The notes under the pieces were generated by a model that saw nothing but the letters and a program-made list of their open reading frames with translations, searched no databases and was not told where the DNA came from. Positions 1 through 40,447 of a DNA stretch of 40,447 bases are shown here, piece after piece. The position numbers and the translations under genes were made by a program. The stretch's first letter is position 1. The number at the start of each line of letters is the position of its first letter. The stretch is from a virus: positions 1 through 40,447 of the IMG/VR virus record IMGVR_UViG_3300010401_000052. One strand, 5' to 3'.

Positions 1-144
1 AAAAAGGAAAGAAATGAAGCAAGCAGAAGTAAAAATTAAAGGGTTGAGACCAATTTTATTCCATGCGTTTAAAATTGAGGCTATAACAAATCTAGAGCAA
101 AAGAAATCTGGTAGCGCCGGAAATAACCCAGAAGAATGGAAGTC
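1..144. repeat. Terminal direct repeat, left copy (pairs with 40304-40447)
   Basis: Bases 1-144 match 40304-40447 except at position 96 (A) versus 40399 (G). This is what a circular or circularly permuted genome gives when the contig runs past its own start. The unit length is therefore about 40,303 bp. The mismatch changes codon 28 of the gene at 14-616 from Glu (GAG) to Gly (GGG), so it is either a real variant in the population or a sequencing error. Confidence 0.9.
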
Positions 145-616
145 TACCGTTTTAGAAAAAGGCGGTCAACTGTATGTCCCAGCCTCTTATTGGAGTGGTT
201 GTCTTAAAGAGGCATCGAGATACACAAAAGCAGGCCGAGGATCTATCCAGAAGTCGTTTATCTCCTCATCTTTGGTTCTTACTGAAATTTCATTAATTGA
301 TAGATGGCTTCCTGAAGGTTGGGAGAAAATGGCATTTAATGAAATGCCAAGCGATAGTTCACAAGATGTATATTTAGATATCCGAGCTGTAATGAACCCC
401 AATTCCAAAGGGAAAAATATCCGTTACAGAGTAGCTTGCTGCCCCGGATGGAAAACAGAATTTGCTTTTTCTTTTGATGATTCTATTGTCTCACCATCAC
501 AAATCAAAAAGATTGTAGATGACGCTGGTAAGATGGTTGGCATCGGTGATGCCCGAGTGCTAGGTTATGGGCGGTTCGAAATAGAGTCTATCAAAATCAC
601 AGAGATGAAAGATTAG
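14..616 (+). CDS. RAMP/Cas7-like phage protein of unknown function
   Basis: A 200-residue soluble protein with an AAAGGAAAG ribosome-binding site before the ATG. Features in order: an N-terminal beta strand (KIKGLRPILFHAF, residues 8-20); a segment LYVPASYWSGCLKEA (53-67), like the 'PGSSLKGALR' region of RAMP proteins; and a C-terminal glycine-rich loop GIGDARVLGYGRFEI (176-190), like the RAMP G-loop. I recall a widespread family of prophage proteins with the same architecture and no known role. The RAMP link is inference from these motifs, and no catalytic residues are evident. It lies in the rightward operon that crosses the circle junction, between pentamer arrays 40178-40288 and 622-801. 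The 5' end is repeated at the right end of the contig. Confidence 0.7.
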   Translation: MKQAEVKIKGLRPILFHAFKIEAITNLEQKKSGSAGNNPEEWKSTVLEKGGQLYVPASYWSGCLKEASRYTKAGRGSIQKSFISSSLVLTEISLIDRWLPEGWEKMAFNEMPSDSSQDVYLDIRAVMNPNSKGKNIRYRVACCPGWKTEFAFSFDDSIVSPSQIKKIVDDAGKMVGIGDARVLGYGRFEIESIKITEMKD

Positions 617-825: not shown

Positions 826-1092
826 ATGGAAAAAATAAACAAACATGAGGCTCCATCTGCATGGTTTTTTGCGGAATGGATATCTATCATAGGTACTTTT
901 TTGGTATGTTTTGTGTTTTTGTTCTATCAAAACCAATTGCAAACCGAAAGGACTGATAAAATTTCTGAAAGATTACAACAAGAAATGTCCACGCAATCTG
1001 AAAGATCAGACAAATTATATATAATGTTTGCAGAATCACAAAAAGAATTTCACCAAAAATTCTACGATTTGCTGAAGGAAGGAAGGAAATAA
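826..1092 (+). CDS. Small membrane/coiled-coil protein
   Basis: An 88-residue protein with a strong AAGGAG site. Residues about 14-36 form one hydrophobic membrane segment (WISIIGTFLVCFVFLFY). After that comes a charged, Gln/Glu-rich helix that should form a coiled coil, ending in FYDLLKEGRK. The layout (short N-terminus, one TM segment, coiled coil, basic end) and the 'DKLY.MF...LLK' type ending are shared with the proteins at 21864-22013 and 28204-28404. A holin- or spanin-like role or a membrane-anchored adaptor is possible; nothing in the sequence decides this. Confidence 0.7.
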   Translation: MEKINKHEAPSAWFFAEWISIIGTFLVCFVFLFYQNQLQTERTDKISERLQQEMSTQSERSDKLYIMFAESQKEFHQKFYDLLKEGRK

Positions 1093-4433: not shown

Positions 4434-4925
4434 TTAGGGTTTTGAAATCCATTCTATCACGATGGTTCCATTATTTAAAGCCGGAGCCCCAGCACCTACT
4501 AAAAATTTTATTGTATCTGTGGTTGTGGATCCTGCATTTAGGGCTATGTAAAAAGAAATTTGTCCTGCAATTGCCACAGAGGTGCCTGGAATTAGCCCAT
4601 ACCAATTAGTGCCGTCAGTATACGTGCCAAAAAAGCGCACAAAACGCTCAATTGTAGAGAATTTGAAGCCCAAGTCCATATCTGCAGTAGTAGTGAATGT
4701 GTAAACCTGTCTTAGACCTTGCTGGCGTTGATTTTGAAAGATAAACCAGTTCTCACCATTGATTGCAGGCCGATTTGTAGGAAAAATCGATATGATGCGA
4801 TTATTAACGGTATTGGCAATATCGACATAGGCCTTATTCATTTCAACGGACATCTGATGCATTTCTTCCGGGAATTCCCTAGAAGTCCGTAAATATGCCA
4901 CCTGATTAACAACATTAGCGCTCAT
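4434..4925 (-). CDS. Putative tail protein
   Basis: A 163-residue protein. An N-terminal helical stretch (residues 1-40) is followed by a beta-rich body with many aromatic and Thr residues (YTFTTTADMDLGFKFSTIE). Its start overlaps the stop of the large tail protein 4922-7912 by ATGA, so the two are probably translationally coupled. It resembles small proteins found beside tail stabilisation proteins in podoviruses. I recognise no named domain. Confidence 0.6.
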   Translation of the reverse strand: MSANVVNQVAYLRTSREFPEEMHQMSVEMNKAYVDIANTVNNRIISIFPTNRPAINGENWFIFQNQRQQGLRQVYTFTTTADMDLGFKFSTIERFVRFFGTYTDGTNWYGLIPGTSVAIAGQISFYIALNAGSTTTDTIKFLVGAGAPALNNGTIVIEWISKP

Positions 4926-7912
4926 GCCAATACCTGGGAAGGTGATACATCCAAAATAAAGCTATGCAATTCAATTTCAGCAAATTGATTAGGGGCTACA
5001 ATTGTTGCAATACCCCCAGAAACATAAATTCCAAATGGGGCGGAATTGACTTCAATTGTTACGGTCGTAGCATCAGATTCCAGCACATTAAATATATTAT
5101 TGTTTAGTTCTGTCATGCCCACAACGCCCGTGATACGAATTGTAGAACCTGGAGTAAAGGCAGCTGTCGTTGTTAAAACACAGGGGCTTGCCCTTGTAGC
5201 TCCAGTAATAGCATATGAGTTCGTAGATACCTCTAAAGTCCTCATTTGGTCTTCGGACAAGGTAAATCCTAATTGGACTGTATCTCCAATGAGAGATGTG
5301 TTTATGCGATGCCAAATCTGCTGCTGAGCATCTGCCGTAGGCATCTGTAAATTAACATTTGCCGCCGTTAAACCTAAATTTGTGCTTTCTGGGCATGTGT
5401 AGAGTACAGTGCTATATAGAAGCGCATTATTTAAACTCAAAGGATCCGGTACAAAAGGCGGTTCATTATATGGACTACTATCGTTTTGGCTTAAGAATAT
5501 GAGCAGGGTAATTTGGGCATTCGAAGTCTTGCTCAAAAGATATTGCTGAACGCCTATTCTAGTTTTTCTCGCCATTCCCCAGGCTACTGGGAACTGCTTT
5601 GTTTGGATAAACGGCACATACATTCTTTTGATTAAGCCGCCTCCAAGATATGTTCCAGATGTAATAGTAGGATTTAAAATAAAGGTATTGTTATCTACTG
5701 AAGTTACTTGGAATATTTTCCCGTTTACTTGTGCGCCGACGGTTCCTAAAGCTCCTGTGATGATTATGAAGTCATCTTCATTTAAACCATGGTCTGGAGA
5801 CGTAACAGTGCTAGAAGATATGTTTTGGATGTATAAAGAGTTCCCTTCATTCGTTCCTTCGTCTTTGACCATTACGAAGCCTTGCTGATTACCTGCGATG
5901 ATTTCTGGTTGCAACAAAGTCGACTCACCTGCATTCCAAGGGTCATTCCAAGAATTCCATGTAGGATAAATCAGACCTACAGTACTCCAAATAAATCCTG
6001 TTTTTCTTCGAAACTGGCCATAATGAGTATAAGATTCATTGAAAATGGCCCAAGACTGGTCTCTATAGTTGTAGAAGAGCGTTTGGTTAGGAAATTTCAC
6101 TTTATCTTCATCAGCAGTATATGTGAGATAAATCCATTCATTTATGAAGTCTCTTTGGGCTGTGACGCGTTCTGGACCGTTATTTGTAAGCTGGAACTGG
6201 AAAACTTGATCAGGTATCTCTAAATCAATTCTTTGGCATTCTGTTTGCCCTGTAATGATGATACCGCGGCTTCCTCTAGTGATTACGCCTTTATCCATAT
6301 TGATTGCAGAGAAAACGCTGCTGGAACCCAGTTCAGAATTGATTATGTAGAAGTTGAATGGGATAATATCATTACCCGTATACACAAATCTGGCCTGCAA
6401 ACGATCAAACCCTAAAATAATCACATCCCCGTTCATGGAAGCACTGTTTATGGGCTGATCAATGCCGGCTGTAATAAAGCCGCCAAATCCTGTTTGGTCT
6501 TCCCAGTATGCGCTAGGGGTGGCTGTTTGATTGTCTGGAACAAGAATAGGATGGAAAGTCGTTGTCGCTAAAGATGGATCGCCAGTAAAAGACGCAGTGT
6601 AATATGGAGTTCCATTTTGGCTATATATAACAGTGTCCTGGAGATACCTCTGACTGCCCACTGCTGAAGTCTGGACGACTGGGCCAATAAAAATCAGGCG
6701 ATCTTTAAAAGACATTATCATCCTGGCGCCGACTAAGTAATATAGGGCCTTAGGTAGATCTGCGATAGAGAAATTAGATATTGATAAAGGAGGAGCAAAA
6801 TTTACCCATCCCTTAGCTCCATTTAATGTAGGATTTGTAGAATTACCATTAGTGGGATCTCCATCATACCATCTCAAAGAATCTACAGTGGTATCTGATC
6901 GGTTTGTAAGATATTGTGCTATCCCCCCAGTTCCATTACCGACCAAAGTCGCATTAGGAAACTCTACCGATACATTATTAGCGTCAATAACAGCGATCAC
7001 ATATCCTGTTTGAAAGTTTATCCCAGTAGTGGTTACCACTTCATTAATGAATAAAAAGTCTCCCACAACTAAGCCATGGCCTGTTATTTGCAATGTAGCT
7101 ATAGCAGGTGGTCCTCCCGCAGTAATAGTAACAGTAACAATTGGTTTAAATTGCATCCCGATATTTGTTGTGGTAAAAGGCACTGTGATGCCATTTGTAG
7201 CCCACAATGCGCCTTGATAATTCACAGTCCAGAATTGCTGATAATCCTGCCCATTCCATGTTGTAGGTGTGATATCAGTTTTTGGTATGTAGCCAGGCAA
7301 TAAAGCGCTAACGCCTGGGTTCTTATAAAAACTAACATCATAAATAGGGTATGGATTGGCGGTAGTGATATTATAAGAATAGACTGTATCGAACGCTAGT
7401 GTCCCTGGGAAATCGTTTATACCAATTGTTAGCTCTTCAAGACCCATTACGGGCAAATCAGGTGTATATAAAAATTGAGCCGTTATCGCATGGCCTGCAC
7501 CGCCAGTGATCGTTATAGCGCCGGTAGCGTAATTAATGGTTCCCGTTCCCGCGGGAGCTCCTGTTAGAGTGCCATTTTTTAGAGGATCTGTGTAAGTGCG
7601 GCCAGTTACGGTATCCAATATAGAAACGCTTCCAGGAACGATATTCCCATTGGTTTCTAAGCCAAATCCTGTAAGAATGTTGGCTGCTCCTCCGACCAGA
7701 TTAATAGTAGAAGTGGAAGAATAAGAAACCGAAGTGGATTTGAAAAATCTTTGTAACCGACCAAGAAGAGAAGTGCCGCGTTTACGCTTTATTCTTCCTC
7801 TCCATTGATATGCATTGACTAAAGTAGGAAATGAATCATTATCAATAACAAATGGAGTAACATCATTCCGCAAGCCTCTTGTGATGGGCCCTACAACGAT
7901 TTTGTCGCCCAT
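4922..7912 (-). CDS. Large tail / stabilisation protein with FCCH-like modules
   Basis: A 996-residue beta-rich protein, the largest in the genome. The N-terminus (GPITRGLRNDVTPFVIDNDS, residues 8-27) is typical of podovirus tail proteins that join the portal complex to the tail. Three copies of a small module of type 'HGL..GD.....G....N...F.V...D...' occur, at roughly residues 275-325, 695-745 and 920-975; database annotation often labels this fold as the ubiquitin-activating E1 FCCH domain. The same module appears in 10295-10948 and 10997-12118. The body is rich in Asn/Thr and aromatic residues, as in structural tail proteins. The next gene upstream ends one base before its start. Confidence 0.7.
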   Translation of the reverse strand: MGDKIVVGPITRGLRNDVTPFVIDNDSFPTLVNAYQWRGRIKRKRGTSLLGRLQRFFKSTSVSYSSTSTINLVGGAANILTGFGLETNGNIVPGSVSILDTVTGRTYTDPLKNGTLTGAPAGTGTINYATGAITITGGAGHAITAQFLYTPDLPVMGLEELTIGINDFPGTLAFDTVYSYNITTANPYPIYDVSFYKNPGVSALLPGYIPKTDITPTTWNGQDYQQFWTVNYQGALWATNGITVPFTTTNIGMQFKPIVTVTITAGGPPAIATLQITGHGLVVGDFLFINEVVTTTGINFQTGYVIAVIDANNVSVEFPNATLVGNGTGGIAQYLTNRSDTTVDSLRWYDGDPTNGNSTNPTLNGAKGWVNFAPPLSISNFSIADLPKALYYLVGARMIMSFKDRLIFIGPVVQTSAVGSQRYLQDTVIYSQNGTPYYTASFTGDPSLATTTFHPILVPDNQTATPSAYWEDQTGFGGFITAGIDQPINSASMNGDVIILGFDRLQARFVYTGNDIIPFNFYIINSELGSSSVFSAINMDKGVITRGSRGIIITGQTECQRIDLEIPDQVFQFQLTNNGPERVTAQRDFINEWIYLTYTADEDKVKFPNQTLFYNYRDQSWAIFNESYTHYGQFRRKTGFIWSTVGLIYPTWNSWNDPWNAGESTLLQPEIIAGNQQGFVMVKDEGTNEGNSLYIQNISSSTVTSPDHGLNEDDFIIITGALGTVGAQVNGKIFQVTSVDNNTFILNPTITSGTYLGGGLIKRMYVPFIQTKQFPVAWGMARKTRIGVQQYLLSKTSNAQITLLIFLSQNDSSPYNEPPFVPDPLSLNNALLYSTVLYTCPESTNLGLTAANVNLQMPTADAQQQIWHRINTSLIGDTVQLGFTLSEDQMRTLEVSTNSYAITGATRASPCVLTTTAAFTPGSTIRITGVVGMTELNNNIFNVLESDATTVTIEVNSAPFGIYVSGGIATIVAPNQFAEIELHSFILDVSPSQVLA

Positions 7913-36576: not shown

Positions 36577-38964
36577 TTATAAAGGTCTTACTATAAAATA
36601 TGCAAATGAGGAAACATCTGCCGTTTGCGTTGATGCAGGAGTGCCCAAAATCAAACTAGTGACAGTGAAGCTTGTAGCATTTATGATAGTATATGTGTAC
36701 TCGCCTAATGTTACAGAGCCGTTGCTAGCTATCCTAGATAGGAATATCAAGTCACCAGTAGCGATATTTGTGTTGGCAATTGTGACTGTACCTAAAGTGA
36801 GTACTCCAGTACCTGCGAAGTCAGTAGCAGCTCCAGTTTTAATTTGTAGGCCTTTTCCAGTTGTCGCGATTCTTAAGTTGGCTCCTGTAACCTTAACATC
36901 ACCAGACCCTGCGTTCAGGACTGTAGTTGATGTTGTTGTTGTTGAGCCCAAGGTAACAGTTTTTGCTGCACCACCTGTACCGATAAGCAATGTAGTCGCT
37001 GCGGCATCGCCTGAAATGGTAATTGCTCCTGTACCAGTAGCCAATGTGAAGATACCATTTGTGGTCGTGTATGTTGTTCCTGCAGTACCTGTATTCACGT
37101 TAACTGCAGTAGCGCCCGTGATATTACCGATAGTAACGATATGCGCTATTGCGTTAGTCCCGACGTTTACTCCACCTGTACCGGCATTAAGTGATACCGC
37201 AGTAACACCAGTAGAGTTACCGATATTGATCGTATGGTCTGCTGCGTCAGCGCCGATTGAGATGGTTCCTGTTCCTGTAGTTAAAGCGAATGCTCCGTTA
37301 GTTGTGTTAAATGAGCTAGCGCCAGTTCCTGCGTTAATCACAACAGTAGAAGCGCCAGTAACATTACCTATGGTTACTGCGTGAGCAATAGCATTTGTTC
37401 CGACGTTTACACCACCTGTACCACCATTAATAGATACAGCAGTTACTCCTGTCGAGTTACCGATCGTGATAGTATGGTCAGCAGCATCAGCACCGATTGA
37501 GATAGTTCCTGTTCCTGTTAATAGACTGAAAATGCCATTAGTAGTCGTTAGGGTTGTGCCACCTGTTCCTGTGTTGATATTGACAGCAGTAGCACCTGTG
37601 ATGTTACCGATGGTTACAGTATGCTCGATAGCATTAGTACCAACGTTAACGCCAGAAGTACCACCATTTAAGGAAACGGGAGTCGCGCCTGTAGAGTTAC
37701 CAATATTGATGATATGATCAGCAGCATCAGCGCCAATGGATATAGTTCCAGTCCCGGTAAGTAGGCTAAAGATACCGTTAGTGGTTGTGACTGTAGAGCC
37801 ACCGGTACCAGTATTGATATTAACGGCTGTAGCTCCGGTGATATTACCTATGGTGACTGTATGGGCAATTGCGTTCGTACCGACCGTGACACCGGCAGTA
37901 CCTGCGTTAAGAACTACTTGAGTAGCGCCTGTGCTATTGCCTAAAGTGATAATATGAGCAGCTGCATCAGTACCAATGTTGATACCACCAGTTCCTGTAG
38001 CGATAGTGAATGTGCCGTTTGTAGTTGTAAAGGCAGAGCCACCAGTACCAGTATTGATATTGACTGCAGTACCGCCTGTAATGTTACCTATCGTAATTGT
38101 TTTAGCAACTGCGTCTGTTCCGACCGAAATGGCTCCTGTGCCGGTCAACACACTAAAGATACCGTTGGTTGTTGTTATTGTAGATCCGGCGGTTCCTGTG
38201 TTAACGTTTACTGCAGTAGCGCCTGTGATATTTCCAATTGTTACTATATGGGCTATAGCATTAGTGCCTATGTTTAATGCACCAGTGCCGGCGTTTAGTA
38301 CTATGCTTGTAGCGCCCGTGGAGTTACCTAGGGTGATTGTACGAGCAGCCGCTCCTGTTCCTATATTGATTGCATCTGCTGAAGCATCCGAACCGATATT
38401 GATTGCTGTACCACCAGAAAGGATTGTTGCACTTCCACTTAATGAGGCTAAACCGCTCGCTCCGATTGTTGTGAATAAAGCAGCCGCTGGAGTTGTTCCT
38501 CCGATAGCTGGATTAGCAGCGAACACAGCCGCAAGACTCTTTGGTTGTACTGCAAGAGGTGTTCCTGGGTTTAAGTTGGTTCCTGCTACTGCCTGGGCAT
38601 CTGTAGCTTCTTGAATAAGCCCTACAGCAGCTTCTGTGGCTAAATTACCACCTGCTATTACAACGCTATTAACAAATGTAAAGACATCGTTGGCTAATGG
38701 CACTACAGAACCTGCTGGAGCTGTCCCTGCTTCTAATTGTGCTAATGTAGAGAGAAGTACACTACCAGCTAATGTAGTAGATGCAGGCGAAGCTCCTCCT
38801 GTTACCCATGTCAGGCCATTGTATACATATTCTGCTGGTGGCGTTACGCTTTTATCGAAATATTGCTGACCTAATTGGGCTCTAAAACTTAATGGAGGAG
38901 GTCCAAAACCTGTCACTGCACCATCTTGAACCGCTATTAGACCACCTATACCATATGCTGTCAT
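36577..38964 (-). CDS. Repeat-rich tail fibre
   Basis: A 795-residue protein with GAGG before the ATG. The N-terminal 100 residues look like a phage attachment domain (GPPPLSFRAQLGQQYFDKSV). The centre, about residues 195-650, consists of imperfect repeats of type 'GTGAI.IGTDA..HTITIGN.TGAT.V..NTGTGG...TTTNG.F', with an 80-residue higher-order unit. The C-terminal 100 residues are a small beta domain. The repeats would form a long beta-structured shaft. Its promoter is 39015-39043. Confidence 0.8.
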   Translation of the reverse strand: MTAYGIGGLIAVQDGAVTGFGPPPLSFRAQLGQQYFDKSVTPPAEYVYNGLTWVTGGASPASTTLAGSVLLSTLAQLEAGTAPAGSVVPLANDVFTFVNSVVIAGGNLATEAAVGLIQEATDAQAVAGTNLNPGTPLAVQPKSLAAVFAANPAIGGTTPAAALFTTIGASGLASLSGSATILSGGTAINIGSDASADAINIGTGAAARTITLGNSTGATSIVLNAGTGALNIGTNAIAHIVTIGNITGATAVNVNTGTAGSTITTTNGIFSVLTGTGAISVGTDAVAKTITIGNITGGTAVNINTGTGGSAFTTTNGTFTIATGTGGINIGTDAAAHIITLGNSTGATQVVLNAGTAGVTVGTNAIAHTVTIGNITGATAVNINTGTGGSTVTTTNGIFSLLTGTGTISIGADAADHIINIGNSTGATPVSLNGGTSGVNVGTNAIEHTVTIGNITGATAVNINTGTGGTTLTTTNGIFSLLTGTGTISIGADAADHTITIGNSTGVTAVSINGGTGGVNVGTNAIAHAVTIGNVTGASTVVINAGTGASSFNTTNGAFALTTGTGTISIGADAADHTINIGNSTGVTAVSLNAGTGGVNVGTNAIAHIVTIGNITGATAVNVNTGTAGTTYTTTNGIFTLATGTGAITISGDAAATTLLIGTGGAAKTVTLGSTTTTSTTVLNAGSGDVKVTGANLRIATTGKGLQIKTGAATDFAGTGVLTLGTVTIANTNIATGDLIFLSRIASNGSVTLGEYTYTIINATSFTVTSLILGTPASTQTADVSSFAYFIVRPL
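37000..38400 (-). repeat. Tandem repeats in the fibre gene, 240-bp period
   Basis: Blocks at 37201, 37441 and 37681 begin with the same 60-base pattern (codons for TGV/A, then HTI.IGNSTG); the spacing is exactly 240 bases (80 codons). Further copies are more diverged. The repeats allow length change of the fibre shaft by recombination. Confidence 0.8.
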
Positions 38965-39103: not shown

Positions 39104-39337
39104 ATGAAAGAAGAAAAAGCGTACCTTACAATCTTAGAATTCGCGCATGAAATATCGGCGCATCCTAATACTGTTAGGAAAATGATCAAGAGCGGGAGAA
39201 TATCGGCCTTCAAACTAGACGGAGGCAGGAAATCGGCCTATAGAATAGCCAGATCAGAAATAACCAGAATGGCGGTTGTTGATTTAGAAAAGATCGTTAA
39301 TGATATGGTAGAGAAGCGGTTGAAAGAGAAAAAATGA
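39104..39337 (+). CDS. Excisionase-type HTH DNA-binding protein
   Basis: 77 residues from the ATG at 39104; the frame is open upstream, across the promoter. The fold YLTILEFAHEISAHPNTVRK (7-26) then MIKSGRISAFKLDGGRKSAY (27-46) with RIARSEI matches small MerR/Xis-type winged helix proteins. The C-terminus is a basic helix. It is the first gene of the operon with pentamer arrays, and perhaps the regulator of both divergent promoters. No integrase is present for it to serve as a true excisionase. Confidence 0.8.
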   Translation: MKEEKAYLTILEFAHEISAHPNTVRKMIKSGRISAFKLDGGRKSAYRIARSEITRMAVVDLEKIVNDMVEKRLKEKK

Positions 39338-39477
39338 TATGGCAACGCCAGGTTTGGCGGGGTGAGGCATGACGTGGTGAGGCGTCACATGGCAGGGCCA
39401 GGTTTGGCAAGGCAAGGCATGGTTCGGCTAGGCGTGGCAAGGCGAGGGTAGGCAAGGTAAGGTAAGGCGAGGCTTGG
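39338..39477 (+). repeat. YNNGG pentamer array, 28 units
   Basis: 140 bases with 28 five-base units in register; it starts one base after the stop codon. Exceptions are caacg, catga and cgtca. It ends cttgg followed by TTTTAATAATAGGAG, directly before the next gene. Confidence 0.93.
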
Positions 39478-39498
39478 TTTTAATAATAGGAGAAGCAT

Positions 39499-39759
39499 AT
39501 GAGTGAAGCCTGGGTGCAAGTACTAGCTCTTTTCGTAGGGAATGCAGCGTTAATTTTATGGTTTAGATCTGAATCTCGAGCTGATTGGCGTCATATGGAT
39601 AATAAGTTAGATATTTTCGTTAAAGGAATCCAGGAAGAAATAAAAGATTTCCATGGCAGATTGGAAAGGCAGGATGCAGAGTTTAAGGGAAGACTAGAGA
39701 AGCAAGACGCGGAATTTAAGGCCCATCTTCTATATCATCATCAGAAAGAAAATAAGTAA
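39499..39759 (+). CDS. Small TM/coiled-coil protein with tandem 11-residue repeat
   Basis: 86 residues with AGGAG. It has a membrane helix (VQVLALFVGNAALILWF, 6-22), then a coiled coil with EEIKDFHGRLERQDAEFKGR and an exact repeat of type RLE(R/K)QDAEFK (two copies, 33 bases each). It ends in a His/Lys-rich tail. It shares KDFHGRL with 39985-40170. Confidence 0.65.
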   Translation: MSEAWVQVLALFVGNAALILWFRSESRADWRHMDNKLDIFVKGIQEEIKDFHGRLERQDAEFKGRLEKQDAEFKAHLLYHHQKENK

Positions 39760-39764
39760 TTAGT

Positions 39765-39964
39765 TTTGGTTCGGCCTGGTCTGGTTCGGCTGGGCATGGT
39801 ATGGCGAGGCATGGCGGGATAAGGCTTGGCATGGTGAGATGTGGTCTGGTTCGGCAAGGTCTGGTTCGGCTAGGTGTGTCTGGGTTAGGCCAGGTGAGGT
39901 AAGGTCTGGCGAGGCATGGAACGGCGAGGTCTGGCTGGATGGGGCGAGATGAGGCGAGGCTTGG
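39765..39964 (+). repeat. YNNGG pentamer array, 40 units
   Basis: 200 bases giving exactly 40 five-base units. Exceptions include cggga, tgaga, tgtgt, ctgga and cgaga. It starts six bases after the stop codon and ends cttgg before TTTATTAAAAGGAA and the next ATG. Confidence 0.93.
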
Positions 39965-39984
39965 TTTATTAAAAGGAAAAATCT

Positions 39985-40170
39985 ATGACAGAAGCAACAA
40001 TACAAGTATTGACGATTGTAGGATCAAATTTAGTGATTATGTTCACATTTTTTGGTGTAACTGTATCTTTGCATAATGGAATACGCGAAGAAATAAGGGC
40101 TATTAAAGACGAGATGAAAGACTTCCACGGTAGGCTATGCGCTATTGAAGAAAGAAACAAGAATAAATAA
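39985..40170 (+). CDS. Small TM/coiled-coil protein of the repeated family
   Basis: 61 residues with AAAGGAA. The hydrophobic N-terminal segment (VLTIVGSNLVIMFTFFGVTV, about 8-27) spans the membrane. A coiled coil follows (REEIRAIKDEMKDFHGRL), then a basic tail. Its plan and the KDFHGRL motif match 39499-39759. Confidence 0.65.
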   Translation: MTEATIQVLTIVGSNLVIMFTFFGVTVSLHNGIREEIRAIKDEMKDFHGRLCAIEERNKNK

Positions 40171-40177
40171 GTTATTG

Positions 40178-40288
40178 CCGGGTGGGGCCCGGCACGGCGG
40201 GGCCCGGTGAGGCTCGGACAGGTAAGGCTGGCCATGGTGAGGCTGGGCCATGGCGTGGCTAGGTATGGTACGGTGAGGTGCGGTATGG
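40178..40288 (+). repeat. YNNGG pentamer array, 22 units with one slip
   Basis: 111 bases: 22 units plus one extra C at 40248, which shifts the register once. It ends tatgg followed by TTTTATTACAC before the RAMP-like gene. It is the most G/C-rich of the four arrays at its start. Confidence 0.9.
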
Positions 40289-40303: not shown

Positions 40304-40447
40304 AAAAAGGAAAGAAATGAAGCAAGCAGAAGTAAAAATTAAAGGGTTGAGACCAATTTTATTCCATGCGTTTAAAATTGAGGCTATAACAAATCTAGGG
40401 CAAAAGAAATCTGGTAGCGCCGGAAATAACCCAGAAGAATGGAAGTC
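40304..40447. repeat. Terminal direct repeat, right copy
   Basis: Identical to 1-144 except position 40399. It shows that the operon crossing the right end continues at the left end. Confidence 0.9.
40317..40447 (+). CDS. RAMP/Cas7-like protein, 5' partial (second view of 14-616)
   Basis: The ATG at 40317 corresponds to 14. Only the first 43 codons are present because the contig ends. It is not a second gene. Codon 28 reads Gly here and Glu in the left copy. Confidence 0.9.
   Translation, partial: MKQAEVKIKGLRPILFHAFKIEAITNLGQKKSGSAGNNPEEWK

What the first reader, a model, noticed from the sequence alone, without database searches (positions are those of the whole stretch)
39338..40288. Three degenerate YNNGG pentamer arrays filling operon gaps at the right end
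Seen directly: between the stop codons and next ribosome-binding sites, the DNA splits into 28, 40 and 22 five-base units. GG is held at unit positions 4-5 and C/T at position 1; positions 2-3 vary. The units are not identical copies, so recent slippage alone does not explain them; selection on period and GG, or a templated diversifying process, is needed. Arrays start within a few bases of stop codons and end in a TTTTA- or TTTATT-like tract. I know of no described element like this. It may act in mRNA structure, ribosome binding, protein binding or DNA topology.
Basis: seen in the sequence. Interest (0 to 1): 0.92.

Follow-up and report, generated by a model that had tools for sequence, protein, structure and literature searches.

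The report
Phage VIPR guide-RNA arrays beside Vipr
The odd five-base repeats are the guide-RNA arrays of VIPR, an RNA-guided DNA-recognition system that phages use against competing phages, first described in a 2026 preprint; this uncultivated phage is a new carrier with unusually long arrays.

Summary
The three arrays (28, 40 and 22 YNNGG units) are far beyond chance, and a fourth (622-801, 36 units) was missed because the contig is circular: its ends overlap by 144 bp. All four lie in one operon with a ~200-aa gene (40317 onward, complete at 14-616). That gene is a Vipr protein. Its family profile matches the solved SUSP1 Vipr (PDB 36pp) at E=5e-42, and its AlphaFold model (pLDDT 93.8) has the Cas7/Csm3 RAMP fold. 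Of 120 viral loci fetched by the array pattern alone, 86 encode this protein, always in the same orientation as the nearest array. The arrays are therefore vrRNA guide arrays of VIPR (Viral Interference Programmable Repeat; PMC13142463, 2026). There, GGY is the protein-held scaffold and each NN pairs with target DNA under a 1-nt skip. Independent support: across 115 GGY loci, NN frequencies match codon positions 1-2 better than any other register (500/500 bootstraps). No target of this phage's guides was found. Additions: relatives use GGA instead of GGY (at least 8 switches on the Vipr tree), the window's arrays are long and mRNA-embedded, and putative membrane coiled-coil genes accompany them. 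New member of a known kind.

The parts
39104..39337 (+). small excisionase/HTH-like gene at the head of the operon; possible DNA-binding accessory protein
   Evidence: PHROG excisionase families E 4.6e-5 to 1.5e-4; role inferred
39338..39477 (+). vrRNA guide array 1: 28 YNNGG units (25 perfect GG)
39478..39498 (+). short 3' tail TTTTAATA and ribosome-binding site; T(T)TTA tract follows the last GG in all four arrays and in relatives
39499..39759 (+). 86-aa protein, N-terminal hydrophobic segment then coiled-coil-like charged region; candidate accessory gene
   Evidence: no Pfam/PHROG match; homologue beside Vipr in related phage L315, 42% identity, E 2e-17; membrane/coiled-coil reading is by eye
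39765..39964 (+). vrRNA guide array 2: 40 YNNGG units (35 perfect GG)
39985..40170 (+). 61-aa paralogue of the 39499 protein
   Evidence: 39% identity in alignment
40178..40288 (+). vrRNA guide array 3: 22 units (14 + 8, 1-nt phase shift at 40248)
40317..40447 (+). 5' part of the vipr gene, repeated at the other contig end (positions 14-144) because the genome is circular
   Evidence: 144-bp terminal overlap, 1 mismatch
14..616 (+). vipr gene, complete copy: 200-aa RAMP protein
   Evidence: PDB 36pp SUSP1 Vipr: phmmer E 5.9e-6, family profile E 5e-42; AF2 pLDDT 93.8; Csm3/Cas7 folds Z up to 12.8; phrog_4652
826..1092 (+). 88-aa protein, hydrophobic segment + coiled-coil-like; candidate accessory gene
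   Evidence: homologue beside Vipr in L315, 41% over 37 aa, E 6e-10

Best explanation
This is a VIPR locus of a circular (or circularly permuted) ~40-kb tailed-phage genome. The operon is transcribed rightwards. The four arrays become the guide tracts of vrRNAs. Vipr, a minimal Cas7-like RAMP protein, coats the RNA with one subunit per five-base unit, holding the GGY bases and exposing the two variable bases NN. The NN of successive units pair with double-stranded DNA as NNx NNx NNx (one target base skipped), and the bound complex blocks transcription of a competing phage, prophage or satellite. Shown here: arrays, linkage to and identity of Vipr, RAMP fold, shared orientation, codon-like NN statistics. 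Shown by others for SUSP1 and P. fulva: vrRNA expression, co-purification, 1-nt-skip recognition, silencing. Inferred for this phage: processing of the long arrays, stoichiometry, targets, and the role of the membrane/coiled-coil genes.
For: The Vipr profile hits the solved SUSP1 Vipr at E 5e-42 as the only PDB match. AF2 pLDDT 93.8; Foldseek top 50 are all CRISPR Cas7/Csm3-type chains, VIA Z 12.8, rmsd 4.7 over 162 residues to type VII Cas7. 86 of 120 viral loci fetched only by array pattern encode the family, 86/86 with the nearest array in the same orientation, 67 within 300 bp. In bacterial genomes 4 of 8 degenerate-array loci have Vipr against 0 of 111 simple-repeat loci. The same detector finds YNNGG arrays on both sides of vipr in SUSP1, where vrRNAs were sequenced (PMC13142463). 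NN dinucleotides match codon positions 1-2 best of six registers, r 0.58, 500/500 bootstraps, r 0.91 in GC<0.5 loci. Related phages keep vipr and arrays but change units.
Against: No natural target was found: IMG/VR exact scans of 8-9 unit windows return chance numbers of hits, tblastn and PHROG searches of decoded peptides give nothing convincing, and related phages give nothing beyond shuffles. The arrays (22-40 units) exceed the 9-16 units reported for the two studied clades, lack an evident structured 3' tail, and some units lack GG. No RNA data exist for this phage.
Confidence: 0.94

Rival explanations
1. The arrays are cis elements in mRNA (stability, antitermination, translational standby, G-quadruplex or R-loop formation) bound by an autoregulatory RNA-binding protein, like TRAP and its NAG repeats, with no guide function.
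For: Arrays lie in operon gaps directly upstream of ribosome-binding sites, on the coding strand only; linked to an RNA-binding-type RAMP protein.
Against: SUSP1 arrays are expressed as separate ~100-nt RNAs and direct silencing (PMC13142463). Pure cis binding does not explain why NN follow codon positions 1-2. Many arrays in other loci lie in blocks without genes between them.
Confidence: 0.04
2. A degenerate satellite or slippage product, or an assembly artefact, without function.
For: Simple 5-bp tandem repeats of the same pattern are common in bacterial genomes.
Against: Unit-uniqueness fraction median 0.71 in viral arrays against 0.23 in genome hits; association with one gene family in 86 loci, always the same orientation; corresponding gaps occupied in a related phage with different units.
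Confidence: 0.01
3. The arrays serve DNA-level recombination or replication (annealing-protein sites, Chi-like sites), placed near recombination genes.
For: Some arrays precede genes that look like RusA or RuvC resolvases by their N-termini (L020, L031, L123; by eye); the phage has a RecE-like exonuclease.
Against: The consistent partner is Vipr, not a recombinase.
Confidence: 0.01

Closest known systems
VIPR of Escherichia phage SUSP1 (PMC13142463; PDB 36pp; type II in the preprint)
   Same: Vipr family protein; YNNGG arrays on both sides of vipr on its strand; hypervariable NN
   Different: SUSP1 tracts are 12-16 units with a conserved structured tail, and vap1 follows; here tracts are 22-40 units, sit between genes with only a short T(T)TTA tail, and hydrophobic/coiled-coil genes sit between the arrays
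Class 1 CRISPR-Cas RAMPs (Csm3, type VII Cas7)
   Same: Same fold, including the glycine-rich loop (GIGD); Cas7-type subunits also coat a guide RNA and interrupt pairing periodically
   Different: No cas operon and no CRISPR repeats; unit of 5 with information in 2 bases, rather than a contiguous spacer read with one base in six flipped out
TRAP and its NAG repeats (from general knowledge)
   Same: Protein-bound RNA with roughly 5-nt periodic motif
   Different: TRAP is an attenuator that carries no target information; Vipr is a RAMP protein

Membership tests
VIPR | Vipr protein: single-RRM RAMP homologue | tested here: met
   36pp profile match E 5e-42; AF2 + Foldseek/VIA Csm3/Cas7 hits
VIPR | Tandem YNNGG repeats (GGY/NN), at least 9 units, flanking vipr on its strand | tested here: met
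VIPR | NN hypervariable, GG and Y conserved | tested here: met
   Window: GG 0.98/0.90, Y 0.94 at position 1, positions 2-3 mixed
VIPR | vrRNA tract of 9-16 units with conserved structured 3' tail (as in the two studied clades; descriptive) | tested here: inconclusive
   22-40 units; only a short T(T)TTA tail shared with relatives. Long arrays may be processed, and the preprint reports other architectures in other types
VIPR | vrRNA expressed and bound by Vipr | not testable with these tools
   No RNA data for this uncultivated phage
VIPR | Targets follow the 1-nt-skip rule on competing elements | tested here: inconclusive
   NN statistics fit codon positions 1-2; no target found
VIPR | vap accessory gene | tested here: inconclusive
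   HTH/excisionase-like gene and conserved hydrophobic/coiled-coil genes; the supplement defining vap1-6 was not readable
CRISPR-Cas | near-identical repeats separated by unique spacers | tested here: not met
   tandem repeat and sequence inspection
simple tandem repeat (microsatellite) | identical or near-identical units | tested here: not met
   Viral-array uniqueness median 0.71 against 0.23; units listed

The most novel reading that the evidence does not exclude
A distinct VIPR form in which very long, tail-poor guide tracts (22-40 units) are embedded between genes of one mRNA and act with small membrane-anchored coiled-coil accessory proteins. The family-wide scaffold base alternates between Y and A through changes in the Vipr glycine-rich loop (G178 to S/C/A).
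Probability: 0.3. Interest if true: 0.6.

Novelty: new member of a known kind. Interest (0 to 1): 0.42.

Why it matters
It places an anonymous environmental phage among carriers of what its discoverers propose is an RNA-guided system older than CRISPR. It shows that vrRNA arrays can be found by DNA pattern alone, without knowing the protein, and independently supports the codon-register (wobble-skip) reading of the NN code on over a hundred loci. The repeated GGY/GGA switches among relatives make the question of how Vipr reads its scaffold base testable.

Tried and rejected
Literature searches for pentamer repeats or GGCAAGGC in phages gave only unrelated matches. DNA similarity to known phages: none. 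Target search: exact 8- and 9-unit patterns in IMG/VR gave 1, 0, 22 and 12 hits, about what chance gives for 16-18 fixed bases, and extension beyond the pattern was at background. The single 9-unit hit, L262, extends to 10 consecutive units in the antisense of a large phage ORF (989 aa, tape-measure-like by eye; skip on the wobble base by my count), but one such hit is expected by chance, so it is not claimed. Decoded peptides found nothing convincing in phages or PHROGs. Guide-to-related-phage and all-against-all searches equalled shuffled guides. No Rfam family in the window, no hammerhead in 14 array loci. A link between Vipr residue G178 and GGY/GGA stands out in weighted mutual information (z 11) but fails a phylogenetic pair test (3.0 pairs for, 0.2 against, median p 0.25): a lead only. 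L259/L260 and L261 carry Vipr homologues without a clear array nearby. I considered TRAP-like attenuation, G4/R-loop, recombination-site and simple-repeat readings.

Full report
Observation. Between 39338 and 40288 the DNA divides into 28, 40 and 22 units of the form YNNGG, as described. The run score far exceeds dinucleotide shuffles (26.8 against at most 4 for the whole window), and G autocorrelation peaks at lag 5 only. A fourth array of 36 units lies at 622-801. The contig ends overlap by 144 bp with one mismatch, so the genome is circular and the order is: HTH-like gene, array 1, small gene, array 2, small gene, array 3, 200-aa gene (40317 to 616), array 4, small gene.

Distribution. These arrays are degenerate (median unique-unit fraction 0.71), while hits of a longer pattern in bacterial genomes are mostly identical-unit microsatellites (0.23). 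Composition over 271 viral arrays: position 1 C 0.68/T 0.26, positions 2-3 free, GG 0.97/0.96. The pattern imposes Y and GG in part, so those figures are biased upward; the window itself gives Y 0.94 and GG 0.98/0.90.

The linked protein. A profile grown from the window's 200-aa gene finds one family in most of these loci: 86 of 120, 67 with an array within 300 bp, and 86 of 86 with the nearest array in the same orientation. In genome contigs, 4 of 8 degenerate-array loci carry it and 0 of 111 simple-repeat loci do. Since the loci were fetched by array alone, array and gene form one system.

Identity. The protein matches PDB 36pp, 'SUSP1 Vipr protein', at E 5.9e-6 by itself and 5e-42 with the family profile, the only PDB hit. 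AlphaFold gives pLDDT 93.8, and the best structural matches are Csm3/Cas7-type RAMPs (Foldseek E 1.3e-9; VIA Z 12.8, rmsd 4.7 A, 162 residues). The preprint PMC13142463 (bioRxiv 2026.04.26.720920, read) describes VIPR: Vipr plus vrRNAs of GGY/NN repeats that recognise double-stranded DNA with a 1-nt skip, silence transcription and target competing phages, prophages and satellites. As a positive control, the SUSP1 locus read with the same detector shows YNNGG arrays of 12, 16 and 15 units around its vipr, followed by a conserved tail.

A test of the code on independent data. If NN pairs with codon positions 1-2 and the skip falls on the wobble base, NN frequencies should resemble codon 1-2 dinucleotides of phage genes. 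Over 115 GGY loci they do so best among the six registers (r 0.58; next 0.20; 500/500 bootstraps) and strongly in AT-rich loci (r 0.91). In 43 GGA loci the same register is best but not decisively (344/500). This supports the rule without identifying any target.

Related phages. Two IMG/VR phages whose terminase is 59% and 57% identical to the window's carry Vipr with arrays of ANNGG (GGA/NN) units. In the first (L315), array, hydrophobic/coiled-coil gene, array, vipr, array, hydrophobic/coiled-coil gene follow one another, and both small proteins are homologous to those of the window. The period and GG are kept while units, unit number (12, 13, 10) and even the fixed base change. A scan for GGANN x10 plus GG found 58 loci, 33 with Vipr in the same orientation. 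On a tree of 117 Viprs the Y/A state needs 12 changes, at least 8 on strongly supported branches. The preprint mentions 'a related consensus' in some types, so GGA itself may be known; its supplement could not be read.

What is special here. Arrays of 28, 40, 22 and 36 units are long (median 13 in this set; 39 of 603 have 28 or more) and longer than the 9-16 reported for two clades. Each ends in GG-T(T)TTA followed by a ribosome-binding site, a short tract shared with relatives, and no structured tail is evident. Whether each array is one long guide or is cut into several is unknown. The small hydrophobic/coiled-coil proteins differ from the DNA-interacting vap genes described; their role is inferred only from conservation next to Vipr in one relative.

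Targets. None found (see Tried and rejected). The host is unknown and the collections that could hold the target were only partly searchable.

Mechanism and status of each step. Shown here: arrays, linkage, homology, fold, orientation, codon-like NN statistics. Shown elsewhere for homologues: expression, binding, skip rule, silencing, anti-phage effect. Inferred for this phage: all RNA-level behaviour, targets, and accessory roles.

Verdict. Real, widespread and functionally important, but it is a new member of VIPR, a system already described in a 2026 preprint.

Noticed in passing
L258 4813-5150 (and L321); L044 6829-7056: vrRNA-type arrays alternate with tRNA acceptor/T-arm-like hairpins (GGTTCGACTCCC), possibly RNA-processing signals; L302 6880 onward has a tRNA-like sequence right after an array. 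Seen by eye; ARAGORN not run.
   Followed up: partly
58 viral loci L297-L354: GGANN arrays beside Vipr in 33 loci; the scaffold base switched between Y and A at least 8 times on the Vipr tree.
   Followed up: yes
Vipr residue G178 of window:14-613 (GIGD loop): Glycine in most GGY Viprs, S/C/A in most GGA Viprs; suggestive but not significant once relatedness is counted.
   Followed up: partly
L031 6308-7012: A single 141-unit YNNGG array followed by a gene that looks like RusA by its N-terminus.
   Followed up: no
L259 3986-4672, L261 3989-4582: Vipr homologues (39-40% identical) without a clear GG array nearby; L259 has only a short G-rich tract at 4900-4990. Possibly another unit consensus or lost arrays.
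   Followed up: partly
window 37100-37884: 240-bp tandem repeats (3.3 copies, 72%) inside the 795-aa minus-strand ORF 36577-38964, perhaps a fibre-like protein.
   Followed up: no
window 1-144 and 40304-40447: 144-bp terminal overlap with one mismatch although IMG/VR class is 'linear': the genome is circular or circularly permuted.
   Followed up: yes
phages collection, Ounavirinae (SUSP/Felixounavirus-like): 117 records at 90% identity or more to the SUSP1 Vipr; the 20 rows shown are annotated 'hypothetical protein' or 'Phage protein'.
   Followed up: no
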